DNA from: Meghimatium bilineatum
Taxonomy: Eukaryota; Mollusca; Gastropoda; Stylommatophora; Philomycidae
Length of the DNA stretch: 64,000 bases
Reading direction: 5' to 3'
Assembly: GCA_034231615.1 (NCBI GenBank)
Contig: CM067306.1
Coordinates: 45,638,094 to 45,702,093, forward strand
The translations under genes were made by a program, and so were the position numbers. The notes below the pieces were generated by a model. The model was not told the origin of the DNA and made no database searches. It was given only the letters and a program-made list of their open reading frames with translations. Positions within the stretch are counted from its first letter, which is position 1, and each line of letters opens with the position of its first letter. Below are positions 1 through 64,000 of the stretch, piece after piece.

Positions 1-3
1 TTA

Positions 4-20
4 CTTCGTCAGAACTGGCG
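4..20 (+). promoter_or_regulatory. Variant element CTTCGTCAG (B4 monomers)
   Basis: CTTCGTCAGAACTGGCG keeps the same seven core bases as the TTCG form and differs in the spacer. Seven copies, by start: 4 1165 2005 55330 57167 57497 60153. All lie in the outer zones of the window. Confidence 0.4.
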
Positions 21-32
21 TTACACACGAAT

Positions 33-202
33 TGGGTGTATTGCAGTTTAGTACGTCAGAACTCGTTGTATTCTGGCATATTACTCACAAATTCATTGTA
101 CTGAAGCTTACTACACTAGAATTGAGTATATTCTGGCCCATTACACATGATTTCGTTGTATTGCAGCTTCATACGTCAGAACACTGGCGTATACACACGA
201 AT
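33..202 (+). repeat. Archetype A monomer (170 bp)
   Basis: This monomer splits into five 30-bp sub-repeats (33-62, 63-92, 93-122, 123-152, 153-182) and a 20-bp tail (183-202). Aligned by position, the five sub-repeats agree at ten columns: T1, T5, T7, A8, T10, G14, T20, A21, C22 and A28. It carries a HindIII site (AAGCTT) in the third sub-repeat, as do nearly all A monomers. The tail reads CGTATACAC here. Most other A monomers have CGTATTACAC or CGTATTAAAC, one base longer, which gives 171 bp. Variable sites used to tell subtypes apart include TACGTCAGA, TACGCCAAA and TACACCAAA in sub-repeat 1, and TGGCCC, TGGCCT and TGGTCA in sub-repeat 4. Confidence 0.95.
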
Positions 203-674
203 TGGGTGTATTGCAGTGTAGTACGCCAAAACTCGTTGTATTCTGGAATATTACTCACACATTCATTGTAGTGAAGCTTACTACATTAGAATTGAGTGTA
301 TACTGGCCTATTGCACATGATTTCGTTGTATTGCAGCTTAATACTTCAGAACACTGGCGTATATACAAGAATTGGGTGTACTGCAGTTTAGTACGCCAAA
401 ACTTGTTGTATTCTGGAATATTACTCACAAATTCATTGTACTGAAGCTTACTACACTAGAATTGAGTGTATTCTGGCCTATTACACTTGATTTCGTTGTA
501 GTGCAGCTTAAAACGTCAGAACACTTGCGTATTACACACGAATTGGGTGTATTGCAGTTTAAGTACACCAAAACTCGTTGCATTCTGGCATATTACTCAC
601 TAATTTGGTGTACTGAAGCTTACTACACCACAACTCAGTGTTTGCTTGTCACAAATATGGTATGTTGTAGCTTA

Positions 675-691
675 CTTCGTTAGAACTGGCG
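675..691 (+). promoter_or_regulatory. CENP-B-box-like element, TTCG form
   Basis: CTTCGTTAGAACTGGCG. The mammalian CENP-B box core, TTCGnnnnAnnCGGG, needs nine bases. This has seven of them (TTCG, A and the middle GG). It differs at TGGC for CGGG. Sixty-five copies, by start: 675 3681 4348 4850 5439 6426 7526 8184 9193 9695 11501 12510 13012 13838 14847 15349 17337 18006 18508 20325 21334 21836 22662 23329 23826 24150 24651 25985 26982; 28317 28814 29138 29639 30636 and the same five plus 3655, 7310, 10965; 44277 44775 46781 48446 48944 49439 50108 56156 57822 58488 58983 60475 61314 61812 62307 62976. (The fourth HOR copy's 30636 partner is 41601.) 4348 reads AACAGGCG, 50108 and 62976 end GGCT, and 57822 lacks one A. 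A protein-binding role is inference. Confidence 0.4.
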
Positions 692-3031: not shown

Positions 3032-3214
3032 TTACACACAAATTGAGTGTATTGCAGTTTAGTACGTCAGAACTCGTTGTATTCTGGAATATTACTCACA
3101 TATTCATTGTACTGAAGCTTACTACACTAGAATTGAATGTATTCTGGCCTATTACACTTGATTTGGTTGTTGTGCAGCTTAAAACGTCAGAACACTGGCG
3201 TATTACACACGAAT

Positions 3215-4222: not shown

Positions 4223-7200
4223 TGGGAGTATTGCAGTTTACTACACCAACTCGTTGTATTGTGGCATATTACTCACTAATGTGGTGTACTAAAGATTACT
4301 ACACCACAACACAGTTTGCTTGTCACAAATATGTATGTTGTAGCTTACTTCGTTAGAACAGGCGTTACACACGAATTGAGTGTATTGCAGTTTAGTACGT
4401 CAGAACTCGTTGTATTCTGGCATATTACTCACAAATTCATTGTACTGAAGCTTACTACACTAGAATTGAGTATATTCTGGCCCATTACACATGATTTCGT
4501 TGTATTGCAGCTTCATACGTCAGAACACTTGCGTATTACACACGAATTGGGTGTACTGCAGTTTAGTACGCCAAAACTTGTTGTATTCTGGAATATTACT
4601 CACAAATTCATTGTACTGAAGCTTACTACACTAGAATTGAGTGTATTCTGGCCTATTACAGTTGATTTCGTTGTAGTGCAGCTTAAAACGTCAGAACACT
4701 TGCGTATTACACACGAATTGGGTGTATTGCAGTTTAAGTACACCAAAACTCGTTGCATTCTGGCAGATTACTCACTAATTTGGTGTACTGAAGCTTACTA
4801 CACCACAACTCAGTGTTTGCTTGTCACAAATATCGTATGTTGTAGCTTACTTCGTTAGAACTGGCGTTACACACGAATTGAGTGTATTGCAGTTTAGTAC
4901 GTCAGAACTCGTTGTATTCTGGCATATTACTCACAAATTCATTGTACTGAAGCTTACTACACTAGAATTGAATGTATTCTGGTCAATTACACATGATTTC
5001 GTTGTATTGCAGCTTAATACTTCAGAACACTGGTGTATTAAACACGAATTGGGAGTAGTGCAGTTTAGTACGCCAAAACTCGTTGTATTCTGGCATATTA
5101 ATCACAAATTCATTGCACTGAAGCTTACTACACTAGAATTGAGTGTATAGAGTCCTATTGCACATGATTTCTTTGTATTGCAGCTTAATACGTCAGAACA
5201 CTGGCGTATCACATAGGAATTTGGTGTATTCCAGTTTAGTACGGCAAACCTCGTTGTATTCTGGCATATTACTCACAAATTCATTGTACTGAAGCTTACT
5301 ACACTAGAATTGAGTATATTCTGGCCCATTACACATGATTTCGTTGTATTGCAGCTTAATACGTCAGAACACTGGCTTCAGGCTTACTACACCACAACTC
5401 AGTGTTTGCTTGTCACAAATATCGTATGTTGTAGCTTACTTCGTTAGAACTGGCGTTACACACGAATTGAGTGTATTGCAGTTTAGTACGTCAGAATTCT
5501 GGCATATTACTCACAAAATCATTGTACTGAAGCTTACTACACTAGAATTGAATGTATTCTGGTCAATTACACATGATTTCGTTGTATTGCAGCTTAATAC
5601 TTCAGAACACTGGTGTATTAAACACGAATTGGGAGTAGTGCAGTTTAGTACGCCAAAACTCGTTGTATTCTGGCATATTAATCACAAATTCATTGCACTG
5701 AAGCTTACTACACTAGAATTGAGTGTATAGAGGCCTATTGCACATGATTTCTTTGTATTGCAGCTTAATACGTCAGAACACTGGCGTATCACATAGAATT
5801 TGGTGTATTCCAGTTTAGTACGGCAAACCTCGTTGTATTCTGGCATATTACTCACAAATTCATTGTACTGAAGCTTACTACACTAGAATTGAGTATATTC
5901 TGGCCCATTACACATGATTTCGTTGTATTGCAGCTTAATACGTCAGAACACTGGCGTATTACACACGAATTGGGTGTATTGCAGTTTAGTACACCAAAAC
6001 TCGTTGTATTCTGGCATATTACTCACTAATTTGGTGTACTGAAGCTTACTACACCATAACTCAGTGTTTGCTTGTCACAAATATGGTATGTTGTAGCTTA
6101 CGTCGTTAGAACTGGCGTTACACACGAATTGAGTGTATTGCAGTTTAGTATGTCAGAACTCGTTGTATTCTGGCATATTACTCACATATTCATTGTACTG
6201 AAGCTTACTAGACTAGAATTGAGTGTATACTGGCCCATTACACATGATTTCGTTGTATTGCAGCTTAATACTTCAGAACACTGGCGTATTAAACACGAAT
6301 TGGGAGTATTGCAGTTTACTACACCAACTCGTTGTATTGTGGCATATTACTCACTAATGTGGTGTACTAAAGATTACTACACCACAACACAGTTTGCTTG
6401 TCACAAATATGTATGTTGTAGCTTACTTCGTTAGAACTGGCGTTACACACGAATTGAGTGTATTGCAGTTTAGTACGTCAGAACTCGTTGTATTCTGGCA
6501 TATTACTCACAAATTCATTGTACTGAAGCTTACTACACTAGAATTGAGTATATTCTGGCCCATTACACATGATTTCGTTGTATTGCAGCTTCATACGTCA
6601 GAACACTTGCGTATTACACACGAATTGGGTGTACTGCAGTTTAGTACGCCAAAACTTGTTGTATTCTGGAATATTACTCACAAATTCGTTGTACTGAAGC
6701 TTACTACACTAGAATTGAATGTATTCTGGTCAATTACACATGATTTCGTTGTATTGCAGCTTAATACTTCAGAACACGTTTATTAAACACGAATTGGGAG
6801 TAGTGCAGTTTAGTACGCCACAACTCGTTGTATTCTGGCATATTAATCACAAATTCATTGCACTGAAGCTTACTACACTAGAATTGAGTGTATAGAGTCC
6901 TATTGCACATGATTTCTTTGTATTGCAGCTTAATACGTCAGAACACTGGCGTATCACATAGGAATTTGGTGTATTCCAGTTTAGTACGGCAAACCTCGTT
7001 GTATTCTGGCATATTACTCACAAATTCATTGTACTGAAGCTTACTACAATAGAATTGCATGTATTCTGGTCAATTACACATGATTTCGTTGTATTGCAGC
7101 TTAATACTTCAGAACACTGGTGTATTAAACACGAATTGGAAGTAGTGCAGTTTAGTACGCCAAAACTCGTTGTATTCTGGCATATTAATCACAAATTCAT

Positions 7201-8074
7201 TGCACTGAAGCTTACTACACTAGAATTGAGTGTATAGAGGCCTATTGCACATGATTTCTTTGTATTGCAGCTTAATACGTCAGAACACTGGCGTATCACA
7301 TAGGAATTTGGTGTATTCCAGTTTAGTACGGCAAACCTCGTTGTATTCTGGCATATTACTCACAAATTCATTGTACTGAAGCTTACTACACTAGAATTGA
7401 GTATATTCTGGCCCATTACACATGATTTCGTTGTATTGCAGCTTAATACGTCAGAACACTGGCTTCAGGCTTACTACACCACAACTCAGTGTTTGCTTGT
7501 CACAAATATCGTATGTTGTAGCTTACTTCGTTAGAACTGGCGTTACACACGAATTGAGTGTATTGCAGTTTAGTACGTCAGAATTCTGGCATATTACTCA
7601 CAAATTCATTGTACTGAAGCTTACTACACTAGAATTGAATGTATTCTGGTCAATTACACATGATTTCGTTGTATTGCAGCTTAATACTTCAGAACACTGG
7701 TGTATTAAACACGAATTGGGAGTAGTGCAGTTTAGTACGCCAAAACTCGTTGTATTCTGGCATATTACTCACAAATTCATTGTACTGAAGCTTACTACAC
7801 TAGAATTGAATGTATTCTGGTCAATTACACATGATTTCGTTGTATTGCAGCTTAATACTTCAGAACACTGGTGTATTAAACACGAATTGGGATTAGTGCA
7901 GTTTAGTACGCCAAAACTCGTTGTATTCTGGCATATTACTCACAAATTCATTGTACTGAAGCTTACTACACTAGAATTGAGTATATTCTGGCCCATTACA
8001 CATGATTTCGTTGTATTGCAGCTTAATACGTCAGAACACTGGCGTATTACACACGAATTGGGTGTATTGCAGTT
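4223..8074 (+). repeat. Mosaic zone of short segmental duplications
   Basis: Blocks here recur elsewhere at several offsets. The stretch 4,316-5,150 matches 9,161-9,995 at an offset of 4,845 bp. About 5,240-5,740 matches 7,330-7,730 at 2,087 bp. The B elements are at 4348, 4850, 5439, 6101, 6426 and 7526 (starts). A three-monomer cassette recurs: an A with TGTATAGAGGCC or TATAGAGTCC followed by TTTCTTTG, then an A starting TTGGTGTATTCCAG with ACGGCAAACC, then often B2. No single HOR length describes the zone. Confidence 0.8.
5373..5384 (+). repeat. Deletion junction between A tail and B third sub-repeat
   Basis: ACTGGCTTCAGGCTTACTAC joins the tail of an A monomer to the third sub-repeat of a B monomer, so the end of one and the start of the next are missing. 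The same junction occurs at 7,460-7,471. Both copies are followed by the same 9-bp loss in the next A monomer (TCAGAATTCTGG at 5,491 and its copy near 7,578). The event therefore happened once and was copied by the 2,087-bp duplication. Confidence 0.8.
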
Positions 8075-11000
8075 TACTACACCAACTCGTTGTATTGTGG
8101 CATATTACTCACTAATGTGATGTACTAAAGATTACTACACCACAACACAGTTTGCTTGTCACAAATATGTATGTTGTAGCTTACTTCGTTAGAACTGGCG
8201 TTACACACGAATTGAGTGTATTGCAGTTTAGTACGTCAGAACTCGTTGTATTCTGGCATATTACTCACACATTCATTGTACTGAAGCTTACTACACTAGA
8301 ATTGAGTAAATTCTGGCCCATTACACATGATTTCGTTGTATTGCAGCTTCATACGTCAGAACACTTGCGTATTACACACGAATTGGGTGTACTGCAGTTT
8401 AGCACGCCAAAACTTGTTGTATTCTGGAATATTACTCACAAATTCATTGTACTGAAGCTTACTACACTAGAATTGAATGTATTCTGGTCAATTACACATG
8501 ATTTCGTTGTATTGCAGCTTAATACTTCAGAACACGTTTATTAAACACGAATTGGGAGTAGTGCAGTTTAGTACACCACAACTCGTTGTATTCTGGCATA
8601 TTAATCACAAATTCATTGCACTGAAGCTTACTACACTAGAATTGAGTATATTCTGGCCCATTACACATGATTTCGTTGTATTGCAGCTTCATACGTCAGA
8701 ACACTGGTGTATTAAACAAGCATTGGGAGTAGTGCAGTTTAGTACGCCAAAACTCGTTGTATTCTGGCATATTAATCACAAATTCATTGCACTGAAGCTT
8801 ACTACACTAGAATTGAGTGTATAGAGGCCTATTGCACATGATTTCTTTGTATTGCAGCTTAATACGTCAGAACACTGGCGTATCACATAGGAATTTGGTG
8901 TATTCCAGTTTAGTACGGCAAACCTCGTTGTATTCTGGCATATTACTCACAAATTCATTGTACTGAAGCTTACTACACTAGAATTGAGTATATTCTGGCC
9001 CATTACACATGATTTCGTTGTATTGCAGCTTAATACGTCAGAACACTGGCGTATTACACACGAATTGGGTGTATTGCAGTTTAGTACACCAAAACTCATT
9101 GTATTCTGGCATATTACTCACTAATTTAGTGTACTGAAGCTTACTACACCACAACACAGTTTGCTTGTCACAAATATGTATGTTGTAGCTTACTTCGTTA
9201 GAACTGGCGTTACACACGAATTGAGTGTATTGCAGTTTAGTACGTCAGAACTCGTTGTATTCTGGCATATTACTCACAAATTCATTGTACTGAAGCTTAC
9301 TACACTAGAATTGAGTATATTCTGGCCCATTACACATGATTTCGTTGTATTGCAGCTTCATACGTCAGAACACTTGCGTATTACACACGAATTGGGTGTA
9401 CTGCAGTTTAGTACGCCAAAACTTGTTGTATTCTGGAATATTACTCACAAATTCATTGTACTGAAGCTTACTACACTAGAATTGAGTGTATTCTGGCCTA
9501 TTACACTTGATTTCGTTGTAGTGCAGCTTAAAACGTCAGAACACTTGCGTATTACACACGAATTGGGTGTATTGCAGTTTAAGTACACCAAAACTCGTTG
9601 CATTCTGGCAGATTACTCATTAATTTGGTGTACTGAAGCTTACTACACCACAACTCAGTGTTTGCTTGTCACAAATATCGTATGTTGTAGCTTACTTCGT
9701 TAGAACTGGCGTTACACACGAATTGAGTGTATTGCAGTTTAGTACGTCAGAACTCGTTGTATTCTGGCATATTACTCACAAATTCATTGTACTGAAGCTT
9801 ACTACACTAGAATTGAATGTATTCTGGTCAATTACACATGATTTCGTTGTATTGCAGCTTAATACTTCAGAACACTGGTGTATTAAACACGAATTGGGAG
9901 TAGTGCAGTTTAGTACGCCAAAACTCGTTGTATTCTGGCATATTAATCACAAATTCATTGCACTGAAGCTTACTACACTAGAATTGAGTGTATAGAGGCC
10001 TATTGCACATGATTTCTTTGTATTGCAGCTTAATACGTCAGAACACTGGCGTATCACATAGGAATTTGGTGTATTCCAGTTTAGTACGGCAAACCTCGTT
10101 GTATTCTGGCATATTACTCACAAAGTCATTGTACTGAAGCTTACTACACTAGAATTGAGTATATTCTGGCCCATTACACATGATTTCGTTGTATTGCAGC
10201 TTAATACGTCAGAACACTGGCGTATTACACACGAATTGGGTGTATTGCAGTTTAGTACACCAAAACTCGTTGTATTCTGGCATATTACTCACTAATTTGG
10301 TGTACTGAAGCTTACTAAACTCAGTGTTTGCTTGTCACAAATATGGTATGTTGTAGCTTACGTCGTTAGAACTGGCGTTACACACGAATTGAGTGTATTG
10401 CAGTTTAGTATGTCAGAACTCGTTGTATTCTGGCATATTACTCACAAATTCATTGTACTAGACTAGAATTGAGTGTATACTGGCCCATTACACATGATTT
10501 CGTTGTATTGCAGCTTAATACTGAGAACACTGGCGTATTAAACGCGAATTGGGAGTATTGCAGTTTACTACACAAACTCGTTGTATTGTGGCATATTACT
10601 CACTAATGTGGTGTACTGAAGATTGCTACACCACAACACAGTTTGCTTGTCACAAATATGTATGTTGTAGCTTACTTCGTTAGAACTGGCATTACACACG
10701 AATTGAGTGTATTGCAGTTTAGTACGTCAGAACTCGTTGTATTCTGGCATATTACTCACAAATTCATTGTACTGAAGCTTACTACACTAGAATTGAATGT
10801 ATTCTGGTCAATTACACATGATTTCGTTGTATTGCAGCTTAATACTTCAGAACACTGGTGTATTAAACACGAATTGGGAGTAGTGCAGTTTAGTACGCCA
10901 AAACTCGTTGTATTCTGGAATATTACTCACAAATTCATTGTACTGAAGCTTACTACACTAGAATTGAATGTATTCTGGTCAATTACACATGATTTCGTTG

Positions 11001-13728
11001 TAATGCAGCTTAATACTTCAGAACACTGGTGTATTAAACACGAATTGGGAGTAGTGCAGTTTAGTACACCAAAACTCGTTGTATTCTGGCATATTACTCA
11101 CTAATTTGGTGTACTGAAGCTTACTACACCATAACTCAGTGTTTGCTTGTCACAAATATGGTATGTTGTAGCTTACGTCGTTAGAACTGGCGTTACACAC
11201 GAATTGAGTGTATTGCAGTTTAGTATGTCAGAACTCGTTGTATTCTGGCATATTACTCACAAATTCATTGTACTGAAGCTTACTAGACTAGAATTGAGTG
11301 TATACTGGCCCATTACACATGATTTCGTTGTATTGCAGCTTAATACTTCAGAACACTGGCGTATTAAACACGAATTGGGAGTATTGCAGTTTACTACACC
11401 AACTCGTTGTATTGTGGCATATTACTCACTAATGTGATGTACTAAAGATTACTACACCACAACACAGTTTGCTTGTCACAAATATGTATGTTGTAGCTTA
11501 CTTCGTTAGAACTGGCGTTACACACGAATTGAGTGTATTGCAGTTTAGTACGTCAGAACTCGTTGTATTCTGGCATATTACTCACAAATTCATTGTACTG
11601 AAGCTTACTACACTAGAATTGAGTAAATTCTGGCCCATTACACATGATTTCGTTGTATTGCAGCTTCATACGTCAGAACACTTGCGTATTACACACGAAT
11701 TGGGTGTACTGCAGTTTAGCACGCCAAAACTTGTTGTATTCTGGAATATTACTCACAAATTCATTGTACTGAAGCTTACTACACTAGAATTGAATGTATT
11801 CTGGTCAATTACACATGATTTCGTTGTATTGCAGCTTAATACTTCAGAACACGTTTATTAAACACGAATTGGGAGTAGTGCAGTTTAGTACGCCACAACT
11901 CGTTGTATTCTGGCATATTAATCACAAATTCATTGCACTGAAGCTTACTACACTAGAATTGAGTATATTCTGGCCCATTACACATGATTTCGTTGTATTG
12001 CAGCTTCATACGTCAGAACACTGGTGTATTAAACACGCATTGGGAGTAGTGCAGTTTAGTACGCCAAAACTCGTTGTATTCTGGCATATTAATCACAAAT
12101 TCATTGCACTGAAGCTTACTACACTAGAATTGAGTGTATAGAGGCCTATTGCACATGATTTCTTTGTATTGCAGTTTAATACGTCAGAACACTGGCGTAT
12201 CACATAGGAATTTGGTGTATTCCAGTTTAGTACGGCAAACCTCGTTGTATTCTGGCATATTACTCACAAATTCATTGTACTGAAGCTTACTACACTAGAA
12301 TTGAGTATATTCTGGCCCATTACACATGATTTCGTTGTATTGCAGCTTAATACGTCAGAACACTGGCGTATTACACACGAATTGGGTGTATTGCAGTTTA
12401 GTACACCAAAACTCATTGTATTCTGGCATATTACTCACTAATTTAGTGTACTGAAGCTTACTACACCACAACACAGTTTGCTTGTCACAAATATGTATGT
12501 TGTAGCTTACTTCGTTAGAACTGGCGTTACACACGAATTGAGTGTATTGCAGTTTAGTACGTCAGAACTCGTTGTATTCTGGCATATTACTCACAAATTC
12601 ATTGTACTGAAGCTTACTACACTAGAATTGAGTATATTCTGGCCCATTACACATGATTTCGTTGTATTGCAGCTTCATACGTCAGAACACTTGCGTATTA
12701 CACACGAATTGGGTGTACTGCAGTTTAGTACGCCAAAACTTGTTGTATTCTGGAATATTACTCACAAATTCATTGTACTGAAGCTTACTACACTAGAATT
12801 GAGTGTATTCTGGCCTACTACACTTGATTTCGTTGTAGTGCAGCTTAAAACGTCAGAACACTTGCGTATTACACACGAATTGGGTGTATTGCAGTTTAAG
12901 TACACCAAAACTTGTTGCATTCTGGCAGATTACTCACTAATTTGGTGTACTGAAGCTTACTACACCACAACTCAGTGTTTGCTTGTCACAAATATCGTAT
13001 GTTGTAGCTTACTTCGTTAGAACTGGCGTTACACACGAATTGAGTGTATTGCAGTTTAGTACGTCAGAACTCGTTGTATTCTGGCATATTACTCACAAAT
13101 TCATTGTACTGAAGCTTACTACACTAGAATTGAATGTATTCTGGTCAATTACACATGATTTCGTTGTATTGCAGCTTAATACTTCAGAACACTGGTGTAT
13201 TACACACGAATTGAGTGTATTGCAGTTTAGTACGTCAGAACTCGTTGTATTCTGGCATATTACTCACAAATTCATTGTACTGAAGCTTACTACACTAGAA
13301 TTGAATGTATTCTGGTCTATTACACTTGATTTCGTTGTAGTGCAGCTTACTACTTCAGAACACTGGCGTATTACACACGAATTGGGTGTATTGCAGTTTA
13401 GTACATCAAAACTCGTTGTATTCTGGCATATTACTCACTAATTTGGTGTACTGAAGCTTACTACACCATAACTCAGTGTTTGCTTGTCACAAATATGGTA
13501 TGTTGTAGCTTACGTCGTTAGAACTGGCGTTACACACGAATTGAGTGTATTGCAGTTTAGTATGTCAGAACTCGTTGTATTCTGGCATATTACTCACAAA
13601 TTCATTGTACTGAAGCTTACTAGACTAGAATTGAGTGTATACTGGCCCATTACACATGATTTCGTTGTATTGCAGCTTAATACTTGAGAACACTGGCGTA
13701 TTAAACACGAATTGGGAGTATTGCAGTT
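8075..13728 (+). repeat. Large duplication unit, copy 1 (offset 5,654 bp)
   Basis: Landmarks at 8,152, 8,477, 9,161 and 9,666 recur exactly 5,654 bp later. After 10,450 the offset becomes 5,665, because this copy lost 10 bp (CATTGTACTAGACTAG at 10,450) and one base near 10,522. After 11,060 it becomes 5,836, because one 171-bp A monomer is missing here. B elements start at 8184, 9193, 9695, 10361, 10675, 11176, 11501, 12510, 13012 and 13513. The 11,147-13,690 part matches 19,971-22,510 at 8,824 bp. Confidence 0.82.
10675..10691 (+). promoter_or_regulatory. Variant element ending GGCA
   Basis: CTTCGTTAGAACTGGCA, which differs only in the last base, outside the nine-base core. Eight copies, by start: 10675 16340 19328 25153 27649 43609 46113 47778. 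Confidence 0.4.
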
Positions 13729-16700
13729 TACTACACCAACTCGTTGTATTGTGGCATATTACTCACTAATGTGATGTACTAAAGATTACTACACCACAAC
13801 ACAGTTTGCTTTTCACAAATATGTATGTTGTAGCTTACTTCGTTAGAACTGGCGTTACACACGAATTGAGTGTATTGCAGTTTAGTACGTCAGAACTCGT
13901 TGTATTCTGGCATATTACTCACACATTCATTGTACTGAAGCTTACTACACTAGAATTGAGTAAATTCTGGCCCATTACACATGATTTCGTTGTATTGCAG
14001 CTTCATACGTCAGAACACTTGCGTATTACACACGAATTGGGTGTACTGCAGTTTAGCACGCCAAAACTTGTTGTATTCTGGAATATTACTCACAAATTCA
14101 TTGTACTGAAGCTTACTACACTAGAATTGAATGTATTCTGGTCAATTACACATGATTTCGTTGTATTGCAGCTTAATACTTCAGAACACGTTTATTAAAC
14201 ACGAATTGGGAGTAGTGCAGTTTAGTACGCCACAACTCGTTGTATTCTGGCATATTAATCACAAATTCATTGCACTGAAGCTTACTACACTAGAATTGAG
14301 TATATTCTGGCCCATTACACATGATTTCGTTGTATTGCAGCTTCATACGTCAGAACACTGGTGTATTAAACAAGCATTGGGAGTAGTGCAGTTTAGTACG
14401 CCAAAACTCGTTGTATTCTGGCATATTAATCACAAATTCATTGCACTGAAGCTTACTACACTAGAATTGAGTGTATAGAGGCCTATTGCACATGATTTCT
14501 TTGTATTGCAGCTTAATACGTCAGAACACTGGCGTATCACATAGGAATTTGGTGTATTCCAGTTTAGTACGGCAAACCTCGTTGTATTCTGGCATATTAC
14601 TCACAAATTCATTGTACTGAAGCTTACTACACTAGAATTGAGTATATTCTGGCCCATTACACATGATTTCGTTGTATTGCAGCTTAATACGTCAGAACAC
14701 TGGCGTATTACACACGAATTGGGTGTATTGCAGTTTAGTACACCAAAACTCATTGTATTCTGGCATATTACTCACTAATTTAGTGTACTGAAGCTTACTA
14801 CACCACAACACAGTTTGCTTGTCACAAATATGTATGTTGTAGCTTACTTCGTTAGAACTGGCGTTACACACGAATTGAGTGTATTGCAGTTTAGTACGTC
14901 AGAACTCGTTGTATTCTGGCATATTACTCACAAATTCATTGTACTGAAGCTTACTACACTAGAATTGAGTATATTCTGGCCCATTACACATGATTTCGTT
15001 GTATTGCAGCTTCATACGTCAGAACACTTGCGTATTACACACGAATTGGGTGTACTGCAGTTTAGTACGCCAAAACTTGTTGTATTCTGGAATATTACTC
15101 ACAAATTCATTGTACTGAAGCTTACTACACTAGAATTGAGTGTATTCTGGCCTATTACACTTGATTTCGTTGTAGTGCAGCTTAAAACGTCAGAACACTT
15201 GCGTATTACACACGAATTGGGTGTATTGCAGTTTAAGTACACCAAAACTCGTTGCATTCTGGCAGATTACTCATTAATTTGGTGTACTGAAGCTTACTAC
15301 ACCACAACTCAGTGTTTGCTTGTCACAAATATCGTATGTTGTAGCTTACTTCGTTAGAACTGGCGTTACACACGAATTGAGTGTATTGCAGTTTAGTACG
15401 TCAGAACTCGTTGTATTCTGGCATATTACTCACAAATTCATTGTACTGAAGCTTACTACACTAGAATTGAATGTATTCTGGTCAATTACACATGATTTCG
15501 TTGTATTGCAGCTTAATACTTCAGAACACTGGTGTATTAAACACGAATTGGGAGTAGTGCAGTTTAGTACGCCAAAACTCGTTGTATTCTGGCATATTAA
15601 TCACAAATTCATTGCACTGAAGCTTACTACACTAGAATTGAGTGTATAGAGGCCTATTGCACATGATTTCTTTGTATTGCAGCTTAATACGTCAGAACAC
15701 TGGCGTATCACATAGGAATTTGGTGTATTCCAGTTTAGTACGGCAAACCTCGTTGTATTCTGGCATATTACTCACAAAGTCATTGTACTGAAGCTTACTA
15801 CACTAGAATTGAGTATATTCTGGCCCATTACACATGATTTCGTTGTATTGCAGCTTAATACGTCAGAACACTGGCGTATTACACACGAATTGGGTGTATT
15901 GCAGTTTAGTACACCAAAACTCGTTGTATTCTGGCATATTACTCACTAATTTGGTGTACTGAAGCTTACTAAACTCAGTGTTTGCTTGTCACAAATATGG
16001 TATGTTGTAGCTTACGTCGTTAGAACTGGCGTTACACACGAATTGAGTGTATTGCAGTTTAGTATGTCAGAACTCGTTGTATTCTGGCATATTACTCACA
16101 AATTCATTGTACTGAAGCTTACTAGACTAGAATTGAGTGTATACTGGCCCATTACACATGATTTCGTTGTATTGCAGCTTAATACTTGAGAACACTGGCG
16201 TATTAAACGCGAATTGGGAGTATTGCAGTTTACTACACAAACTCGTTGTATTGTGGCATATTACTCACTAATGTGGTGTACTGAAGATTGCTACACCACA
16301 ACACAGTTTGCTTGTCACAAATATGTATGTTGTAGCTTACTTCGTTAGAACTGGCATTACACACGAATTGAGTGTATTGCAGTTTAGTACGTCAGAACTC
16401 GTTGTATTCTGGCATATTACTCACAAATTCATTGTACTGAAGCTTACTACACTAGAATTGAATGTATTCTGGTCAATTACACATGATTTCGTTGTATTGC
16501 AGCTTAATACTTCAGAACACTGGTGTATTAAACACGAATTGGGAGTAGTGCAGTTTAGTACGCCAAAACTCGTTGTATTCTGGAATATTACTCACAAATT
16601 CATTGTACTGAAGCTTACTACACTAGAATTGAATGTATTCTGGTCAATTACACATGATTTCGTTGTAATGCAGCTTAATACTTCAGAACACTGGTGTATT

Positions 16701-18690: not shown

Positions 18691-18763
18691 GTGTATTAAA
18701 CACGAATTGGGAGTAGTGCAGTTTAGTACGCCAAAACTCGTTGTATTCTGGCATATTACTCAC
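15776..18763 (+). repeat. 2,988-bp duplication, copy 1
   Basis: Starts at the marker CACAAAGTCATTG, which also occurs at 10,12x and 18,76x. Landmarks at 15,986, 16,308, 16,983 and 17,305 recur 2,988 bp later. After 17,590 the offset grows to 3,328 because 340 bp are missing here. Confidence 0.8.
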
Positions 18764-42390: not shown

Positions 42391-42970
42391 GAGTATATTC
42401 TGGCCCATTACACATGATTTCGTTGTATTGCAGCTTCATACGTCAGAACACTGGTGTATTAAACACGCATTGGGAGTAGTGCAGTTTAGTACGCCAAAAC
42501 TCGTTGTATTCTGGCATATTAATCACAAATTCATTGCACTGAAGCTTACTACACTAGAATTGAGTGTATAGAGGCCTATTGCACATGATTTCTTTGTATT
42601 GCAGCTTAATACGTCAGAACACTGGTGTATCACATAGGAATTTGGTGTATTCCAGTTTAGTACGCAAACCTCGTTGTATTCTGGCATATTACTCACAAAT
42701 TCATTGTACTGAAGCTTACTACACTAGAATTGAGTATATTCTGGCCCATTACACATGATTTCGTTGTATTGCAGCTTAATACGTCAGAACACTGGCGTAT
42801 TACACACGAATTGGGTGTATTGCAGTTTAGTACACCAAAACTCGTTGTATTCTGGCATATTACTCACTAATTTGGTGTACTGAAGCTTACTACACCATAA
42901 CTCAGTGTTTGCTTGTCACAAATATGGTATTTTGCAGCTTACGTCGTTAGAACTGGCGTTACACACGAAT
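42391..42970 (+). repeat. Partial leading copy of the 15-monomer HOR
   Basis: Monomers at 42,471, 42,642 and 42,812 correspond to monomers 13-15 of the following HOR at exactly 2,504 bp. The join with the 22-monomer HOR lies within the monomer at 42,302, so it was formed by exchange between aligned A monomers, with no filler sequence. Confidence 0.85.
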
Positions 42971-49090: not shown

Positions 49091-50306
49091 TTTCGTTGTA
49101 TTGCAGCTTAATACTTCAGAAACTGGTGTATTAAACACGAATTGGGAGTATTGCAGTTTAGTACGCCAAAACTCGTTGTATTCTGGCATATTAATCACAA
49201 ATTCATTGTACTGAAGCTTACTACACTAGAATTGAGTGTATACTGGCCTATTGCACATGATTTCGTTGTATTGCAGCTTAATACTTCAGAACACTGGCGT
49301 ATTAAACACGAATTGGGAGTATTGCAGTTTACTACACCAACTCGTTGTATTGTGGCATATTACTCACTAATGTGGTGTACTGAAGATTACTACACCACAA
49401 CACAGTTTGCTTGTCACAAATATGTATGTTGTAGCTTACTTCGTTAGAACTGGCGTTACACACGAATTGAGTGTATTGCAGTTTAGTACGTCAGAACTTA
49501 GTTGTATTCTGGCATATTACTCACAAATTCATTGTACTGAAGCTTACTACACGAGAATTGAGTATATTCTGGCCCATTACACATGATTTCGTTGTATTGC
49601 AGCTTCATACGTCAGAACACTGGCGTACACACACGAATTGGGTGTTCTGCAGTTTAGTACACCAAAACTCGTTGTATTCTGGTATATTAATCACAAATTC
49701 AATGTACTGAAGCTTACTATACTAGAATTGAGTGTATACTGGCATATTGCACATGACTTCGTTGTATTGCAGCTTAATACGTCAGAACACTGGCGTATTA
49801 CACAAGAATTGGCTGTATTGCAGTGTAGTACGCCAAAACTCGTTGTATTCTGGAATATTACTCACACATACATTGTAGTGAAGCTTACTAGACTAGAATT
49901 GAGTGTATACTGGCCCATTACACATTATTTCGTTGTATTGCAGCTTAATACTTCAGAACACTGGCGTATTAAACACGAATTGGGAGTATTGCAGTTTACT
50001 ACACCAACTCGTTGTATTGTGGCATATTACTCACTAATGTATGGTGTACTGAAAATTACTACACCACAACACAGTTTGCTTGTCACAAATATGTATGTTG
50101 TAGCTTACTTCGTTAGAACTGGCTTTACACACGAATTGAGTGTATTGCAGTTTAGTACGTCAGAACTCGTTGTATTCTGGCATATTACTCACAAATTCAT
50201 TGTACTGAAGCTTACTACACTAGAATTGAGTATATTCTGGCCCATTACACATGATTTCGTTGTATTGCAGCTTCATACGTCAGAACACTGGCGTATACAC
50301 ACGAAT
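49091..50306 (+). repeat. Composite monomers between two HOR families
   Basis: Monomer starts: A49143 A49314 is B3 (49,314-49,467), then A49468 A49639 A49810, B3 49,981-50,136, A50137. The second B3 has two extra bases (AATGTATGGTG), which makes it 156 bp. The whole stretch is repeated at 62,011-63,174 with a few substitutions (offset 12,868). Confidence 0.85.
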
Positions 50307-51827
50307 TGGGTGTTCTGCAGTTTAGTACACCAAAACTCGTTGTATTCTGGCATATTAATCACAAATTCAATGTACTGAAGCTTACTATACTAGAATTGAG
50401 TGTATACTGGCCTATTGCACATGATTTCGTTGTATTGCAGCTTAATACGTCAGAACACTGGCGTATTACACAAGAATTGGGTGTATTGCAGTGTAGTACG
50501 CCAAAACTCGTTGTATTCTGGAATATTACTCACACATTCATTGTAGTGAAGCTTACTACACTAGAATTGAGTGTATACTGGCCTATTGCACATGATTTCG
50601 TTGTATTGCAGCTTAATACTTCAGAACACTGTCGTATACACAAGAATTGGGTGTATTGCAGTTTAGTACGCCAAAACTTGTTGTATTCTGGAATATTACT
50701 CACAAATTCATTGCACTGAAGCTTACTACACTAGAATTGAGTGTATAGAGGCCTATTGCACATGATTTCTTTGTATTGCAGCTTAATAGGTCAGATCACT
50801 GGCGTATCACACAGGAATTTGGTGTATTCCAGTTTAGTACGGCAAACCTCGTTGTATTCTGGCATATTACAAATTCATTGTACTGAAACTTACTACACTA
50901 GAATTGAGTATATTCTGGCCCATTACACATGATTTCGTTGTATTGCAGCTTAATACGTCAGATCACTGGCGTATCACACAGGAATTTGGTGTATTCCAGT
51001 TTAGTACGGCAAACCTCGTTGTATTCTGGCATATTACTCACTAATTTGGTGTACTGAAGCTTACTACACCATAACTCAGTGTTTGCTTGTCACAAATATG
51101 GTATGTTGTAGCTTACGTCGTTAGAACTGGCGTTACACACGAATTGAGTGTATTGCAGTTTAGTATGTCAGAACTCGTTGTATTCTGGCATATTACTCAC
51201 AAATTCATTGTACTGAAGCTTACTAGACTAGAATTGAGTATATTCTGGCCCATTACACATGATTTCGTTGTATTGCAGCTTCATACGTCAGAACACTTGC
51301 GTATTACACACGAATTGGGTGTACTGCAGTTTAGTACGCCAAAACTTGTTGTATTCTGGCATATTAATCACAAATTCATTGCACTGAAGCTTACTACACT
51401 AGAATTGAGTGTATAGAGTCCTATTGCACATGATTTCTTTGTATTGCAGCTTAATACGTCAGAACACTGGCGTATCACATAGGAATTTGGTGTATTCCAG
51501 TTTAGTACGGCAAACCTCGTTGTATTCTGGCATATTACTCACAAATTCATTGTACTGAAGCTTACTACACTAGAATTGAGTATATTCTGGCCCATTACAC
51601 ATGATTTCGTTGTATTGCAGCTTCATACGTCAGAACACTTGCGTATTACACACGAATTGGGTGTACTGCAGTTTAGTACGCCAAAACTTGTTGTATTCTG
51701 GCATATTAATCACAAATTCATTGTACTGAAGCTTACTACACTAGAATTGAGTATATTCTGGCCCATTACACATGATTTCGTTGTATTGCAGATTCATACG
51801 TCAGAACACTGGCGTATACACACGAAT
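50307..51827 (+). repeat. 9-monomer HOR (1,521 bp), copy 1
   Basis: Monomer starts: A50307 A50478 A50648 A50819 B50986 A51145 A51316 A51487 A51658. That is 8 A and 1 B, with lengths 171+170+171+167+159+171+171+171+170 = 1,521. The 167-bp A has a 4-bp loss (CATATTACAAATTC). The single B is the B2 subtype with the altered ACGTCGTTAG element, so this HOR carries no CTTCGTTAG box. Confidence 0.95.
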
Positions 51828-53348
51828 TGGGTGTTCTGCAGTTTAGTACACCAAAACTCGTTGTATTCTGGCATATTAATCACAAATTCAATGTACTGAA
51901 GCTTACTATACTAGAATTGAGTGTATACTGGCCTATTGCACATGATTTCGTTGTATTGCAGCTTAATACGTCAGAACACTGGCGTATTACACAAGAATTG
52001 GGTGTATTGCAGTGTAGTACGCCAAAACTCGTTGTATTCTGGAATATTACTCACACATTCATTGTAGTGAAGCTTACTACACTAGAATTGAGTGTATACT
52101 GGCCTATTGCACATGATTTCGTTGTATTGCAGCTTAATACTTCAGAACACTGTCGTATACACAAGAATTGGGTGTATTGCAGTTTAGTACGCCAAAACTT
52201 GTTGTATTCTGGAATATTACTCACAAATTCATTGCACTGAAGCTTACTACACTAGAATTGAGTGTATAGAGGCCTATTGCACATGATTTCTTTGTATTGC
52301 AGCTTAATAGGTCAGATCACTGGCGTATCACACAGGAATTTGGTGTATTCCAGTTTAGTACGGCAAACCTCGTTGTATTCTGGCATATTACAAATTCATT
52401 GTACTGAAACTTACTACACTAGAATTGAGTATATTCTGGCCCATTACACATGATTTCGTTGTATTGCAGCTTAATACGTCAGATCACTGGCGTATCACAC
52501 AGGAATTTGGTGTATTCCAGTTTAGTACGGCAAACCTCGTTGTATTCTGGCATATTACTCACTAATTTGGTGTACTGAAGCTTACTACACCATAACTCAG
52601 TGTTTGCTTGTCACAAATATGGTATGTTGTAGCTTACGTCGTTAGAACTGGCGTTACACACGAATTGAGTGTATTGCAGTTTAGTATGTCAGAACTCGTT
52701 GTATTCTGGCATATTACTCACAAATTCATTGTACTGAAGCTTACTAGACTAGAATTGAGTATATTCTGGCCCATTACACATGATTTCGTTGTATTGCAGC
52801 TTCATACGTCAGAACACTTGCGTATTACACACGAATTGGGTGTACTGCAGTTTAGTACGCCAAAACTTGTTGTATTCTGGCATATTAATCACAAATTCAT
52901 TGCACTGAAGCTTACTACACTAGAATTGAGTGTATAGAGTCCTATTGCACATGATTTCTTTGTATTGCAGCTTAATACGTCAGAACACTGGCGTATCACA
53001 TAGGAATTTGGTGTATTCCAGTTTAGTACGGCAAACCTCGTTGTATTCTGGCATATTACTCACAAATTCATTGTACTGAAGCTTACTACACTAGAATTGA
53101 GTATATTCTGGCCCATTACACATGATTTCGTTGTATTGCAGCTTCATACGTCAGAACACTTGCGTATTACACACGAATTGGGTGTACTGCAGTTTAGTAC
53201 GCCAAAACTTGTTGTATTCTGGCATATTAATCACAAATTCATTGTACTGAAGCTTACTACACTAGAATTGAGTATATTCTGGCCCATTACACATGATTTC
53301 GTTGTATTGCAGATTCATACGTCAGAACACTGGCGTATACACACGAAT
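51828..53348 (+). repeat. 9-monomer HOR (1,521 bp), copy 2
   Basis: All landmarks lie exactly 1,521 bp after copy 1. I noticed no differences by eye. The single B element starts at 52,637. Confidence 0.95.
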
Positions 53349-54765
53349 TGGGTGTTCTGCAGTTTAGTACACCAAAACTCGTTGTATTCTGGCATATTAA
53401 TCACAAATTCAATGTACTGAAGCTTACTATACTAGAATTGAGTGTATACTGGCCTATTGCACATGATTTCGTTGTATTGCAGCTTAATACGTCAGAACAC
53501 TGGCGTATTACACAAGAATTGGGTGTATTGCAGTGTAGTACGCCAAAACTCGTTGTATTCTGGAATATTACTCACACATTCATTGTAGTGAAGCTTACTA
53601 CACTAGAATTGAGTGTATACTGGCCTATTGCACATGATTTCGTTGTATTGCAGCTTAATACTTCAGAACACTGTCGTATACACAAGAATTGGGTGTATTG
53701 CAGTTTAGTACGCCAAAACTTGTTGTATTCTGGAATATTACTCACAAATTCATTGCACTGAAGCTTACTACACTAGAATTGAGTGTATAGAGGCCTATTG
53801 CACATGATTTCTTTGTATTGCAGCTTAATAGGTCAGATCACTGGCGTATCACACAGGAATTTGGTGTATTCCAGTTTAGTACGGCAAACCTCGTTGTATT
53901 CTGGCATATTACAAATTCATTGTACTGAAACTTACTACACTAGAATTGAGTATATTCTGGCCCATTACACATGATTTCGTTGTATTGCAGCTTAATACGT
54001 CAGATCACTGGCGTATCACACAGGAATTTGGTGTATTCCAGTTTAGTACGGCAAACCTCGTTGTATTCTGGCATATTACTCACTAATTTGGTGTACTGAA
54101 GCTTACTACACCATAACTCAGTGTTTGCTTGTCACAAATATGGTATGTTGTAGCTTACGTCGTTAGAACTGGCGTTACACACGAATTGAGTGTATTGCAG
54201 TTTAGTATGTCAGAACTCGTTGTATTCTGGCATATTACTCACAAATTCATTGTACTGAAGCTTACTAGACTAGAATTGAGTATATTCTGGCCCATTACAC
54301 ATGATTTCGTTGTATTGCAGCTTCATACGTCAGAACACTTGCGTATTACACACGAATTGGGTGTACTGCAGTTTAGTACGCCAAAACTTGTTGTATTCTG
54401 GCATATTAATCACAAATTCATTGCACTGAAGCTTACTACACTAGAATTGAGTGTATAGAGTCCTATTGCACATGATTTCTTTGTATTGCAGCTTAATACG
54501 TCAGAACACTGGCGTATCACATAGGAATTTGGTGTATTCCAGTTTAGTACGGCAACCTCGTTGTATTCTGGCATATTACTCACAAATTCATTGTACTGAA
54601 GCTTACTACACTAGAATTGAGTATATTCTGGCCCATTACACATGATTTCGTTGTATTGCAGCTTCATACGTCAGAACACTTGCGTATTACACACGAATTG
54701 GGTGTACTGCAGTTTAGTACGCCAAAACTTGTTGTATTCTGGCATATTAATCACAAATTCATTGC
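53349..54765 (+). repeat. 9-monomer HOR, copy 3, incomplete
   Basis: Follows copy 2 at 1,521 bp, with a 1-bp loss near 54,553 (ACGGCAACCTCG for ACGGCAAACCTCG). Within the ninth monomer the sequence changes to ATTGCACTGAAG and TGTATAGAGTCC (near 54,762-54,803), so the regular series ends there. B element at 54,158. Confidence 0.92.
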
Positions 54766-55199
54766 ACTGAAGCTTACTACACTAGAATTGAGTGTATAGA
54801 GTCCTATTGCACATGATTTCGTTGTATTGCAGCTTAATACGTCAGAACACTGGCGTATTACACACGAATTGGGTGTATTGCAGTTTAGTACACCAAAACT
54901 CGTTGTATTCTGGCATATTACTCACTAATTTGGTGTACTGAAGCTTACTACACCATAACTCAGTGTTTGCTTGTCACAAATATGGTATGTTGTAGCTTAC
55001 GTCGTTAGAACTGGCGTTACACACGAATTGAGTGTATTGCAGTTTAGTATGTCAGAACTCGTTGTATTCTGGCATATTACTCACAAATTCATTGTACTGA
55101 AGCTTACTACACTAGAATTGAATGTATTCTGGTCAATTACACATGATTTCGTTGTATTGCAGCATAATACTTCAGAGCACTGGCGTATTAAACACGAAT

Positions 55200-59670: not shown

Positions 59671-60022
59671 CACTGGCGTATTACACACGAATTGGGTGTA
59701 TTCCAGTTTAGTACGGCAAACCTCGTTGTATTCTGGCATATTACTCACTAATTTGGTGTACTGAAGCTTACTACACCATAACTCAGTGTTTGCTTGTCAC
59801 AAATATGGTATGTTGTAGCTTACGTCGTTAGAACTGGCGTTACACACGAATTGAGTGTATTGCAGTTTAGTATGTCAGAACTCGTTGTATTCTGGCATAT
59901 TACTCACAAATTCATTGTACTGAAGCTTACTACACTAGAATTGAATGTATTCTGGTCAATTACACATGATTTCGTTGTATTGCAGCTTAATACTTCAGAG
60001 CACTGGCGTATTAAACACGAAT

Positions 60023-60181
60023 TGGGAGTATTGCAGTTTAGTACGCCAAAACTCGTTGTATTCTAGGATATTACTAACAAATTGGGTGCACTGAAACTTA
60101 CTTCACCACAATTCAGTGTTAGCTGATCACAAATATGGTATCTTGTAGTTTACTTCGTCAGAACTGGCGTTACACACGAAT
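60023..60181 (+). repeat. B4 monomer
   Basis: 159 bp, with TTACTTCACCACAATTC where the others have TTACTACACC. Element at 60,153-60,169. Its context (upstream A monomer with TTCAGAGCACTGG) is the same as that of the B4 at 55,200. Confidence 0.85.
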
Positions 60182-60431
60182 TGGGTGTATTGCAGTTTAG
60201 TACGTATGAACTCGTTGTATTCTGGCATATTACTCACAAATTCATTGTACTGAAGCTTACTAGACTAGAATTGAGTGTATACTGGCCCATTACACATGAT
60301 TTCGATGTATTGCAGCTTAATACTTCAGAACACTGGCGTATTAAACACGAATTGGGAGTATTGCAGTTTACTACAACTCGTTGTATTGTGGCATATTACT
60401 CACTAATGTGGTGTACTAAAGATTACTACAC

Positions 60432-61162
60432 CACAACACAGTTTGCTTGTCACAAATATGTATGTTGTAGCTTACTTCGTTAGAACTGGCGTTACACACG
60501 AATTGAGTGTATTGCAGTTTAGTACGTCAGAACTCGTTGTATTCTGGCATATTACTTACAAATTCATTGTACTGAAGCTTACTACACTAGAATTGAGTAT
60601 ATTCTGGCCCATTACACATGATTTCGTTGTATTGCAGCTTCATACGTCAGAACACTGGCGTATTACACAAGAATTGGGTGTATTGCAGTGTAGTACGCCA
60701 AAACTCGTTGTATTCAGGAATATTACTCACACATTCATTGTAGTGAAGCTTACTACACTAGAATTGAGTGTATACTGGCCTATTGCACATGATTTCGTTG
60801 TATTGCAGCTTAATACTTCAGAACACTGTCGTATACACAAGAATTGGGTGTATTGCAGTTTAGTACGCCAAAACTTGTTGTATTCTGGAATATTACTCAC
60901 AAATTCATTGCACTGAAGCTTACTACACTATAATTGAGTGTATAGAGTCCTATTGCACATGATTTCTTTGTATTGCAGCTTAATACGTCAGATCACTGGC
61001 GTATCACACAGGAATTTGGTGTATTCCAGTTTAGTACGGCAAACCTCGTTGTATTCTGGCATATTACTCACAAATTCATTGTACTGAAGCTTACTACACT
61101 AGAATTGAGTATATTCTGGCCCATTACACATGATTTCGTTGTATTGCAGCAATACGTCAGAA
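60432..61162 (+). repeat. 1,492-bp offset duplication, copy 2
   Basis: Second copy of 58,940-59,670. Private changes include CATATTACTTAC near 60,549 and GTATTCAGGAAT near 60,711. Its right end abuts the 12,868-bp duplication junction. Confidence 0.8.
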
Positions 61163-64000
61163 CACTGGAGTATACACACAAATTGGGTGTACTGCAGTTT
61201 AGTACACCAAAAATCGTTGTATTCTGGCATATTACTCACTAATTTGGTGTACTGAAGCTTACTACACCACAACTACGTGTTTGCTTGTCACAAATATGGT
61301 ATGTTGTAGCTTACTTCGTTAGAACTGGCGTTACACACGAATTGAGTGTATTGCATTTTAGTACGTCAGAACTCGTTGTATTCTGGCATATTACTCACAA
61401 ATTCATTGTACTGAAGCTTACTACACTAGAATTGAATGTATTCTGGTCAATTACACATGATTTCGTTGTATTGCAGCTTAATACTTCAGAAACTGGTGTA
61501 TTAAACACGAATTGGGAGTATTGCATTTAGTACGCCAAAACTCGTTGTATTCTGGCATATTAATCACAAATTCATTGTACTGAAGCTTACTACACTAGAA
61601 TTGAGTGTATACTGGCCTATTGCACATGATTTCGTTGTATTGCAGCTTAATACTTCAGAACACTGGAGTATACACACAAGTTGGGTGTACTGCAGTTTAG
61701 TACACCAAAAATCGTTGTATTCTGGCATATTACTCACTAATTTGGTGTACTGAAGCTTACTACACCACAACTACGTGTTTGCTTGTCACAAATATGGTAT
61801 GTTGTAGCTTACTTCGTTAGAACTGGCGTTACACACGAATTGAGTGTATTGCATTTTAGTACGTCAGAACTCGTTGTATTCTGGCATATTACTCACAAAT
61901 TCATTGTACTGAAGCTTACTACACTAGAATTGAATGTATTCTGGTCAATTACACATGATTTCGTTGTATTGCAGCTTAATACTTCAGAAAATGGTGTATT
62001 AAACACGAATTGGGAGTATTGCAGTTTAGTACGCCAAAACTCGTTGTATTCTGGCATATTAATCACAAATTCATTGTACTGAAGCTTACTACACTAGAAT
62101 TGAGTGTATACTGGCCTATTGCACATGATTTCGTTGTATTGCAGCTTAATACTTCAGAACACTGGCGTATTAAACACGAATTGGGAGTATTGCAGTTTAC
62201 TACACCAACTCGTTGTATTGTGGCATATTACTCACTAATGTGGTGTACTGAAGATTACTACACCACAACACAGTTTGCTTGTCACAAATATGTATGTTGT
62301 AGCTTACTTCGTTAGAACTGGCGTTACACACGAATTGAGTGTATTGCAGTTTAGTACGTCAGAACTTAGTTGTATTCTGGCATATTACTCACAAATTCAT
62401 TGTACTGAAGCTTACTACACGAGAATTGAGTATATTCTGGCCCATTACACATGATTTCGTTGTATTGCAGCTTCATACGTCAGAACACTGGCGTATACAC
62501 ACGAATTGGGTGTTCTGCAGTTTAGTACACCAAAACTCGTTGTATTCTGGTATATTAATCACAAATTCAATGTACTGAAGCTTACTATACTAGAATTGAG
62601 TGTATACTGGCATATTGCACATGACTTCGTTGTATTGCAGCTTAATACGTCAGAACACTGGCGTATTACACAGGAATTGGCTGTATTGCAGTGTAGTACG
62701 CCAAAACTCGTTGTATTCTGGAATATTACTCACACATTCATTGTAGTGAAGCTTACTAGACTAGAATTGAGTGTATACTGGCCCATTACACATTATTTCG
62801 TTGTATTGCAGCTTAATACTTCAGAACACTGGGGTATTAAACACGAATTGGGAGTATTGCAGTTTACTACACCAACTCGTTGTATTGTGGCATATTACTC
62901 ACTAATGTATGGTGTACTGAAAATTACTACACCACAACACAGTTTGCTTGTCACAAATATGTATGTTGTAGCTTACTTCGTTAGAACTGGCTTTACACAC
63001 GAATTGAGTGTATTGCAGTTTAGTACGTCAGAACTCGTTGTATTCTGGCATATTACTCACAAATTCATTGTACTGAAGCTTACTACACTAGAATTGAGTA
63101 TATTCTGGCCCATTACACATGATTTCGTTGTATTGCAGCTTCATACGTCAGAACACTGGCGTATACACACGAATTGGGTGTTCTGCAGTTTAGTACACCA
63201 AAACTCGTTGTATTCTGGCATATTAATCACAAATTCAATGTACTGAAGCTTACTATACTAGAATTGAGTGTATACTGGCCTATTGCACATGATTTCGTTG
63301 TATTGCAGCTTAATACGTCAGAACACTGGCGTATTACACAAGAATTGGGTGTATTGCAGTGTAGTACGCCAAAACTCGTTGTATTCTGGAATATTACTCA
63401 CACATTCATTGTAGTGAAGCTTACTACACTAGAATTGAGTGTATACTGGCCTATTGCACATGATTTCGTTGTATTGCAGCTTAATACTTCAGAACACTGT
63501 CGTATACACAAGAATTGGGTGTATTGCAGTTTAGTACGCCAAAACTTGTTGTATTCTGGAATATTACTCACAAATTCATTGCACTGAAGCTTACTACACT
63601 AGAATTGAGTGTATAGAGGCCTATTGCACATGATTTCTTTGTATTGCAGCTTAATAGGTCAGATCACTGGCGTATCACACAGGAATTTGGTGTATTCCAG
63701 TTTAGTACGGCAAACCTCGTTGTATTCTGGCATATTACAAATTCATTGTACTGAAACTTACTACACTAGAATTGAGTATATTCTGGCCCATTACACATGA
63801 TTTCGTTGTATTGCAGCTTAATACGTCAGATCACTGGCGTATCACACAGGAATTTGGTGTATTCCAGTTTAGTACGGCAAACCTCGTTGTATTCTGGCAT
63901 ATTACTCACTAATTTGGTGTACTGAAGCTTACTACACCATAACTCAGTGTTTGCTTGTCACAAATATGGTATGTTGTAGCTTACGTCGTTAGAACTGGCG
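61152..64000 (+). repeat. Copy of 48,284-51,132 (12,868-bp offset), runs off the window
   Basis: From ATACGTCAGAACACTGGAG onward every landmark lies 12,868 bp after its partner, up to the last base. I noticed about nine substitutions, such as ACAAGTTGGG near 61,678, GAAAATGGTG near 61,987 and TGGGGTATT near 62,831. The left junction joins GCAGCA, from the neighbouring 1,492-bp unit, to ATACGTCAG. The copied block includes the start of another 9-monomer HOR (63,175 on). Confidence 0.92.

What the first reader, a model, noticed from the sequence alone, without database searches (positions are those of the whole stretch)
1..64000. Uncharacterised satellite with three nested levels: 30 bp, 170/159 bp, and 9-, 15- and 22-monomer HORs
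Five 30-bp sub-repeats plus a tail make the A monomer, and a shortened version makes B. Fixed strings of A and B make HORs of 1,521, 2,504 and 3,655 bp, and these lie inside an even larger 12.9-kb repeat. Several HOR families of different size lie next to each other in 64 kb. I do not recognise the sequence as a known family, but I could not search databases.
Basis: partly seen in the sequence, partly recalled or inferred. Interest (0 to 1): 0.75.

Follow-up and report, generated by a model that had tools for sequence, protein, structure and literature searches.

The report
Layered satellite DNA with higher-order repeats
The whole stretch is one repetitive "satellite" DNA built up in layers from a 30-letter unit, as is usual at centromeres and other packed chromosome regions; the layering is real, but such DNA is a well-known kind and the species could not be named here.

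Summary
The observation largely holds: all 64 kb is one satellite on one strand, split into 386 units: 276 full A monomers (mode 171 bp), 107 full B (mode 159 bp) and 3 partial units. The A consensus is five 30-bp sub-repeats plus 21 bp that look like a 30-mer lacking 9 bp; sub-repeats share 19.3/30 bases on average, against 7.8/30 in shuffles. HORs of 22 monomers (3,655 bp, 3.8 copies, middle two identical), 9 (1,521 bp, about 3.1 copies) and 15 (2,504 bp, under 2 copies) are confirmed, and 14- and 10-mers were found.

The "12.9-kb repeat" is only partly seen: a 2,849-bp match at shift 12,868 runs into the window end, and the span encloses the 9-mer but not the 15- or 22-mer.

Best explanation: a eukaryotic, probably (peri)centromeric or heterochromatic satellite evolving by in-register unequal exchange and local duplication. 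Coding, dyad and CENP-B-box readings were tested and not supported. CpG sites show no transition excess, weakly suggesting a genome without dense satellite methylation. No collection searched held a match, but none is a eukaryotic repeat library, so family-level novelty is untested. Known kind; modest interest.

The parts
1..64000 (+). single satellite array, one orientation, 386 monomer units (A about 171 bp, B about 159 bp)
   Evidence: wrap-around alignment to a 171-bp consensus, 92.5% of bases matching; unit split; no minus-strand self-match at 98.5% or more; 30-mer pattern 1290 on +, 0 on -
29..198 (+). example A monomer (here 170 bp): five 30-bp sub-repeats (29-58, 59-88, 89-118, 119-148, 149-178) plus the short sixth unit (179-198)
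   Evidence: sequence; sub-repeat identity test on the A consensus
7915..22850 (+). mosaic zone: segmental duplications at shifts 5654, 3317, 2336, 8824, 6487, 12141, with a 14-mer HOR (10641-15641, about 2.1 copies, 98.7%)
   Evidence: self-blastn; monomer lag 14
28031..41893 (+). 22-mer HOR, 3,655 bp, 3.79 copies; pattern ABAABABAABAAABABAAAABA; copies 2 and 3 identical; 12 variable sites in all
42303..46958 (+). 15-mer HOR, 2,504 bp, about 1.9 copies, 99.3%; pattern AABAAABAAABAABA
45174..48623 (+). 10-mer version, 1,665 bp, about 2.1 copies, 99.6%; 839 bp shorter than the 15-mer, which fits loss of five monomers
50125..54793 (+). 9-mer HOR, 1,521 bp, about 3.1 copies, 99.7%; pattern AAAABAAAA
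48284..51132 (+). left partner of the 12,868-bp shift
   Evidence: matches 61152-64000 at 99.7%; identity at this shift falls to 22% in the 200 bp left of 48284
61152..64000 (+). right partner of the 12,868-bp shift, cut by the window end
5380..5463 (+). 84-bp deleted B monomer; a second copy at 7467-7550

Best explanation
A eukaryotic non-coding satellite array, most likely from a (peri)centromeric or other heterochromatic block. Inferred history: a 30-bp unit doubled to 60 bp; three 60-bp dimers minus 9 bp became the 171-bp A monomer; B arose by replacement or deletion in sub-repeats 4-6. Runs of A and B were then duplicated many times, in register, by unequal exchange or replication-based duplication with gene conversion. 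This left several HORs of different size and age side by side. The nucleosome-sized monomer and A/T-rich steps every 10 bp would favour regular nucleosome packing, a plausible structural role. Shown: the layers, the HORs, in-register duplication and near-identity of recent copies. Inferred: order of events, chromosome location and chromatin role.
For: All 64 kb is the array; no Rfam match at gathering scores and no tRNA with the bacterial code. 30/60/171 peaks and the sub-repeat test. HOR copies are 98.7-99.9% identical (which kept only matches of 98.5% or more), while A monomers differ on average by 15.8 edits and B by 12.0: the defining HOR contrast. Of 204 ungapped self-matches of 300 bp or more, 204 are in monomer register. 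At all 12 variable sites of the 22-mer array the odd copy is an outer one (copy 1 at 5, copy 4 at 7), as unequal exchange predicts, and some sites cluster, as conversion patches would. WW steps: 53% of within-30-mer spectral power is at period 10 (P = 0.0046 for that harmonic, 0.026 for any). Coding is unlikely.
Against: No location or chromatin data, and no flanking sequence; the centromeric label rests on analogy. The genome search on the window's own assembly did not complete (11 tries, the last). The 10-bp phasing is modest once all harmonics are considered. Identical HOR copies could in part be an assembly effect; no reads were at hand. No CENP-B box and no dyad symmetry above chance.
Confidence: 0.8

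Rival explanations
1. Subtelomeric or X-linked heterochromatic satellite of an insect, such as the nucleosome-sized satellites known in aphids, with no centromere role.
For: HindIII (AAGCTT) occurs in 340 of 386 units; of 339 spacings 128 are 171 bp and 57 are 159 bp, so the array would cut as a HindIII-ladder satellite. Aphids have a 169-bp subtelomeric satellite (Myzus persicae) and X-linked satellites (passages of PMC12241859). No CpG transition excess: A monomers 72/1719 at CpG against 332/7724 at other C/G; in nine partly overlapping duplicate pairs, 9 of 57 transitions are at CpG, while CpG bases are 3,552 of 23,913 G+C bases. This fits a genome without dense satellite methylation.
Against: No sequence of any such satellite could be compared. 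The pea-aphid 3,661-bp satellite is close in length to the 22-mer HOR, but its listed A+T (56.2%) differs from 63.0% here.
Confidence: 0.3
2. A repetitive protein-coding gene: frame 0 of A is open for 57 codons and the 30-bp sub-repeat is 10 codons.
For: A consensus frame 0 has no stop. Pooled over all distinct A sequences, stop-making variants are fewer than expected (11 against 77).
Against: With each distinct variant counted once, stop variants are 6 against 8.2 expected (P = 0.21). Sub-repeat identity is equal at the three codon positions (0.64, 0.64, 0.65). 103 of 106 B monomers have an in-frame stop, and only 140 of 277 A monomers are open and a multiple of 3 long. Longest stop-to-stop frame is 335 aa in 64 kb.
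Confidence: 0.02
3. Assembly artefact: HOR copy numbers or the mosaic were created by misassembled repeats.
For: Copies 2 and 3 of the 22-mer are identical over 3,655 bp, a known risk in assembly.
Against: The outer copies carry private differences (12 variable sites) and many different shifts occur across the window.
Confidence: 0.07

Closest known systems
Primate alpha satellite HOR arrays
   Same: 171-bp monomer, A/B monomer types, HORs of many monomers with near-identical copies and divergent monomers (A/B types recalled; 171 bp and HORs also in passages of PMC4053949)
   Different: No exact or one-mismatch CENP-B box; here each monomer is built of 30-bp sub-repeats, and A and B differ mainly over sub-repeats 4-6. 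The letters were not aligned to alpha satellite here.
HOR-bearing satellites of other animals and plants
   Same: HORs reported in 76 of 171 species with Sanger data; switchgrass HORs mix whole and truncated monomers, a little as A and B mix here (passages of PMC4053949)
   Different: Units here are larger than those switchgrass examples (up to 22 monomers, 3,655 bp), and several HOR sizes lie within 64 kb.
Tribolium madens TmSat1/TmSat2
   Same: satellites built from a shorter ancestral unit (about 110 bp) by higher-order repeats (passages of PMC13081366)
   Different: That system has macro-dyad symmetries; this window is on one strand only and shows no dyad excess.
Aphid 169-bp satellite (Myzus persicae)
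   Same: monomer length (169-bp subtelomeric satellite, passage of PMC12241859); here a HindIII site in 340 of 386 units
   Different: no sequence available for comparison; that aphid satellites are HindIII-type is recalled, not from a call

Membership tests
Satellite DNA with higher-order repeats | long head-to-tail array of one monomer family | tested here: met
   386 units filling 64 kb, one strand
Satellite DNA with higher-order repeats | HOR copies far more alike than the monomers inside them | tested here: met
   98.7-99.9% between HOR copies against mean 15.8 edits per about 171 bp between A monomers
Centromeric satellite | bound by CenH3 / lies at the primary constriction | not testable with these tools
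   no chromatin or mapping data
Primate alpha satellite | CENP-B box (NTTCGNNNNANNCGGGN, motif recalled) in B-type monomers | tested here: not met
   0 exact and 0 one-mismatch sites; 378 forward and 3 reverse two-mismatch sites, and a two-mismatch site is reached by 10.5% (A) and 7.7% (B) of 1,000 shuffled monomers each
Primate alpha satellite | sequence similarity to the alpha consensus | not tested
Dyad-type (cruciform-prone) centromeric satellite | dyad symmetry above chance | tested here: not met
   best dyad 8 of 11 in A and B against a shuffle mean of about 7.6; fold z -0.75 and -1.17
Tandemly repeated protein gene | purifying selection on a reading frame | tested here: not met

The most novel reading that the evidence does not exclude
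This is the main centromeric satellite of an organism outside the mammals. It reached a 10/30/60/171-bp layered monomer and human-like HORs of 9 to 22 monomers without a CENP-B box and without strong CpG methylation, which would make it an independent test of how HORs arise.
Probability: 0.3. Interest if true: 0.5.

Novelty: new member of a known kind. Interest (0 to 1): 0.3.

Why it matters
If the array is centromeric in a non-mammal, it shows HORs of primate-like size arising from a short repeat without a CENP-B box. It would also give a compact 64-kb record of steps that models of HOR birth predict: a 15-mer beside a 10-mer, and edge copies diverging while inner copies stay identical. As a bare sequence family it is one more satellite.

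Tried and rejected
Coding reading: rejected by codon-position, stop and frame tests; the pooled stop deficit (11 against 77) was not significant when each distinct variant was counted once (6 against 8.2, P = 0.21).

CENP-B box: the 381 two-mismatch hits against 37 expected look striking, but one motif per monomer is enough to give them; per monomer P is 0.105 (A) and 0.077 (B).

Dyad/cruciform structure: not above shuffles. Inverted repeats in 43000-47000: 6 pairs, arms 71-88% complementary.

Vertebrate or plant origin by CpG decay: no excess of CpG transitions, so not supported. This is weak evidence, because homogenisation hides old mutations. In A, CpG transversions were higher than at other C/G (124/1719 against 332/7724); B gave transitions 12/413 against 66/2769 and transversions 2/413 against 92/2769. 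One search used nine duplicate pairs, some overlapping, 126 differences in all: transitions 9 CpG and 48 other, transversions 9 CpG and 60 other.

Database identity: 0 hits in viral contigs (4 exact patterns) and genome contigs (2 exact patterns); no match in phages, plasmids or E. coli (one 2,501-bp query each); no Rfam match and no tRNA. Text search for 12 k-mers of the consensus: 0 papers for the first six and one paper for the other six. That one, PMC9672859, was seen in the search listing only, concerns transgenic mice and was not read; I took it for a chance 13-mer match. Eight literature searches by repeat length and HOR terms (two gave no paper, and searches listed only part of their hits) showed no paper recognisable from its listing as this satellite.

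Pea-aphid ApiSat02-3661: rejected as the 3,655-bp HOR on A+T content (56.2% against 63.0%).

Correction on checking: string-based typing had put one 154-bp B unit among the A monomers; the effect on counts is one unit, and no BB neighbours appear under either typing.
Full report
What is there. The window is filled end to end by one tandem repeat in one orientation. A wrap-around alignment to a 171-bp consensus, taken from the Tandem Repeats Finder unit and the sequence, matches 92.5% of the bases. It splits into 386 units. Typed by a B-specific string there are 278 A (277 full, mode 171 bp) and 108 B (106 full, mode 159 bp; two are 84-bp deleted forms), with 198 distinct unit sequences. Typed by edit distance, one 154-bp unit moves to B: 276 full A and 107 full B. 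Searches used the first typing. A monomers differ from each other by a mean of 15.8 edits, B by 12.0, and A from B by 43.7. The A and B consensus differ at 1 of the first 60 bases; the difference lies mainly in sub-repeats 4-6. B is never next to B: 0 BB among 262 distinct neighbour pairs, and 0 also after retyping.

Inside the monomer. The A consensus reads as five 30-bp units plus 21 bp. Mean pairwise identity of the five units is 19.3/30, against 7.8 (sd 0.75) in 2,000 dinucleotide shuffles. The 21-bp tail aligns best to the even units 2 and 4, with 9 bp missing, so A can be read as three 60-bp dimers less 9 bp. Same-parity units are more alike (24, 20, 21 for the odd pairs; 21 for the even pair) than opposite-parity units (16 to 19). 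The autocorrelation shows 30, 60 and 171, and smaller peaks at 10 and 20. In the five 30-mers, WW dinucleotides put 53% of the spectral power at 10 bp (P = 0.0046 for that harmonic; 0.026 for any).

Higher orders. Self-alignment and monomer lags give: 22-mer, 3,655 bp, 28031-41893; 15-mer, 2,504 bp, 42303-46958, under two copies; 10-mer, 1,665 bp, 45174-48623, which equals the 15-mer less 839 bp, about five monomers; 9-mer, 1,521 bp, 50125-54793; 14-mer, about 2,337 bp, 10641-15641. Duplications of at least 2 kb at 98.5% or more cover 63% of the window, and those of at least 1 kb cover 81%. Of 204 ungapped self-matches of 300 bp or more, 204 keep monomer register, and no self-match was on the minus strand. 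The 22-mer copies vary at 12 sites; copies 2 and 3 are identical, and the odd one out is copy 1 at five sites and copy 4 (partial, 2,898 bp) at seven. Some sites cluster as conversion would leave them. The 12,868-bp shift joins 48284-51132 to 61152-64000 and is cut by the window end; to the left it stops at once (identity 22% in the 200 bp before 48284).

What it is not. The tests speak against coding. There is no known RNA at Rfam's gathering scores and no tRNA with the bacterial code, and no dyad or fold excess. There is no CENP-B box closer than two mismatches, and two mismatches per monomer is near chance.

How it most likely works. A non-coding satellite with a nucleosome-length monomer and 10-bp phased A/T steps is suited to regular nucleosome packing; in many eukaryotes such arrays form centromeric or pericentromeric heterochromatin (general knowledge). 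The HOR mosaic follows from unequal exchange or replication-based duplication in register, with conversion. Steps shown: layers, register, near-identity of copies, edge divergence. Steps inferred: order of events, location and chromatin role.

Organism. Not identified. CpG o/e is 0.80, and CpG sites show no excess of transitions, either among monomers (72/1719 against 332/7724 in A; 12/413 against 66/2769 in B) or between copies in nine partly overlapping duplicate pairs (9 of 57 transitions). This points away from heavy CpG methylation as in vertebrate or plant satellites and towards an invertebrate, but weakly.

Compared with what is known. HORs were seen in 76 of 171 species with Sanger data, and switchgrass HORs include truncated monomers (passages of PMC4053949). 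A beetle satellite built from a shorter ancestral unit by HORs is described in PMC13081366 (passages). Nucleosome-sized satellites occur in aphids (passages of PMC12241859). PMC12692304 was searched for HOR terms and its passages held nothing useful. All other papers were seen only as search listings. The find is a member of a known kind, with several HOR sizes in 64 kb; whether the family is already named could not be tested.

Noticed in passing
window 5380-5463 and 7467-7550: Two 84-bp deleted B monomers, 2,087 bp apart, that have lost about 75 bp of the 5' part; a shared deletion that marks a duplication.
   Followed up: partly
window 28031-41893: Four differences of the last 22-mer copy fall within about 35 bp (offsets 2836, 2849, 2856, 2871), as a conversion tract from another monomer would leave them.
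   Followed up: no
window 1-64000: A HindIII site occurs in 340 of 386 units, so the repeat would give a clear HindIII ladder on a gel.
   Followed up: partly
window 1-64000, A monomers: Frame 0 of the A consensus is open for all 57 codons and reads as 10-residue repeats, although codon tests show no selection.
   Followed up: yes
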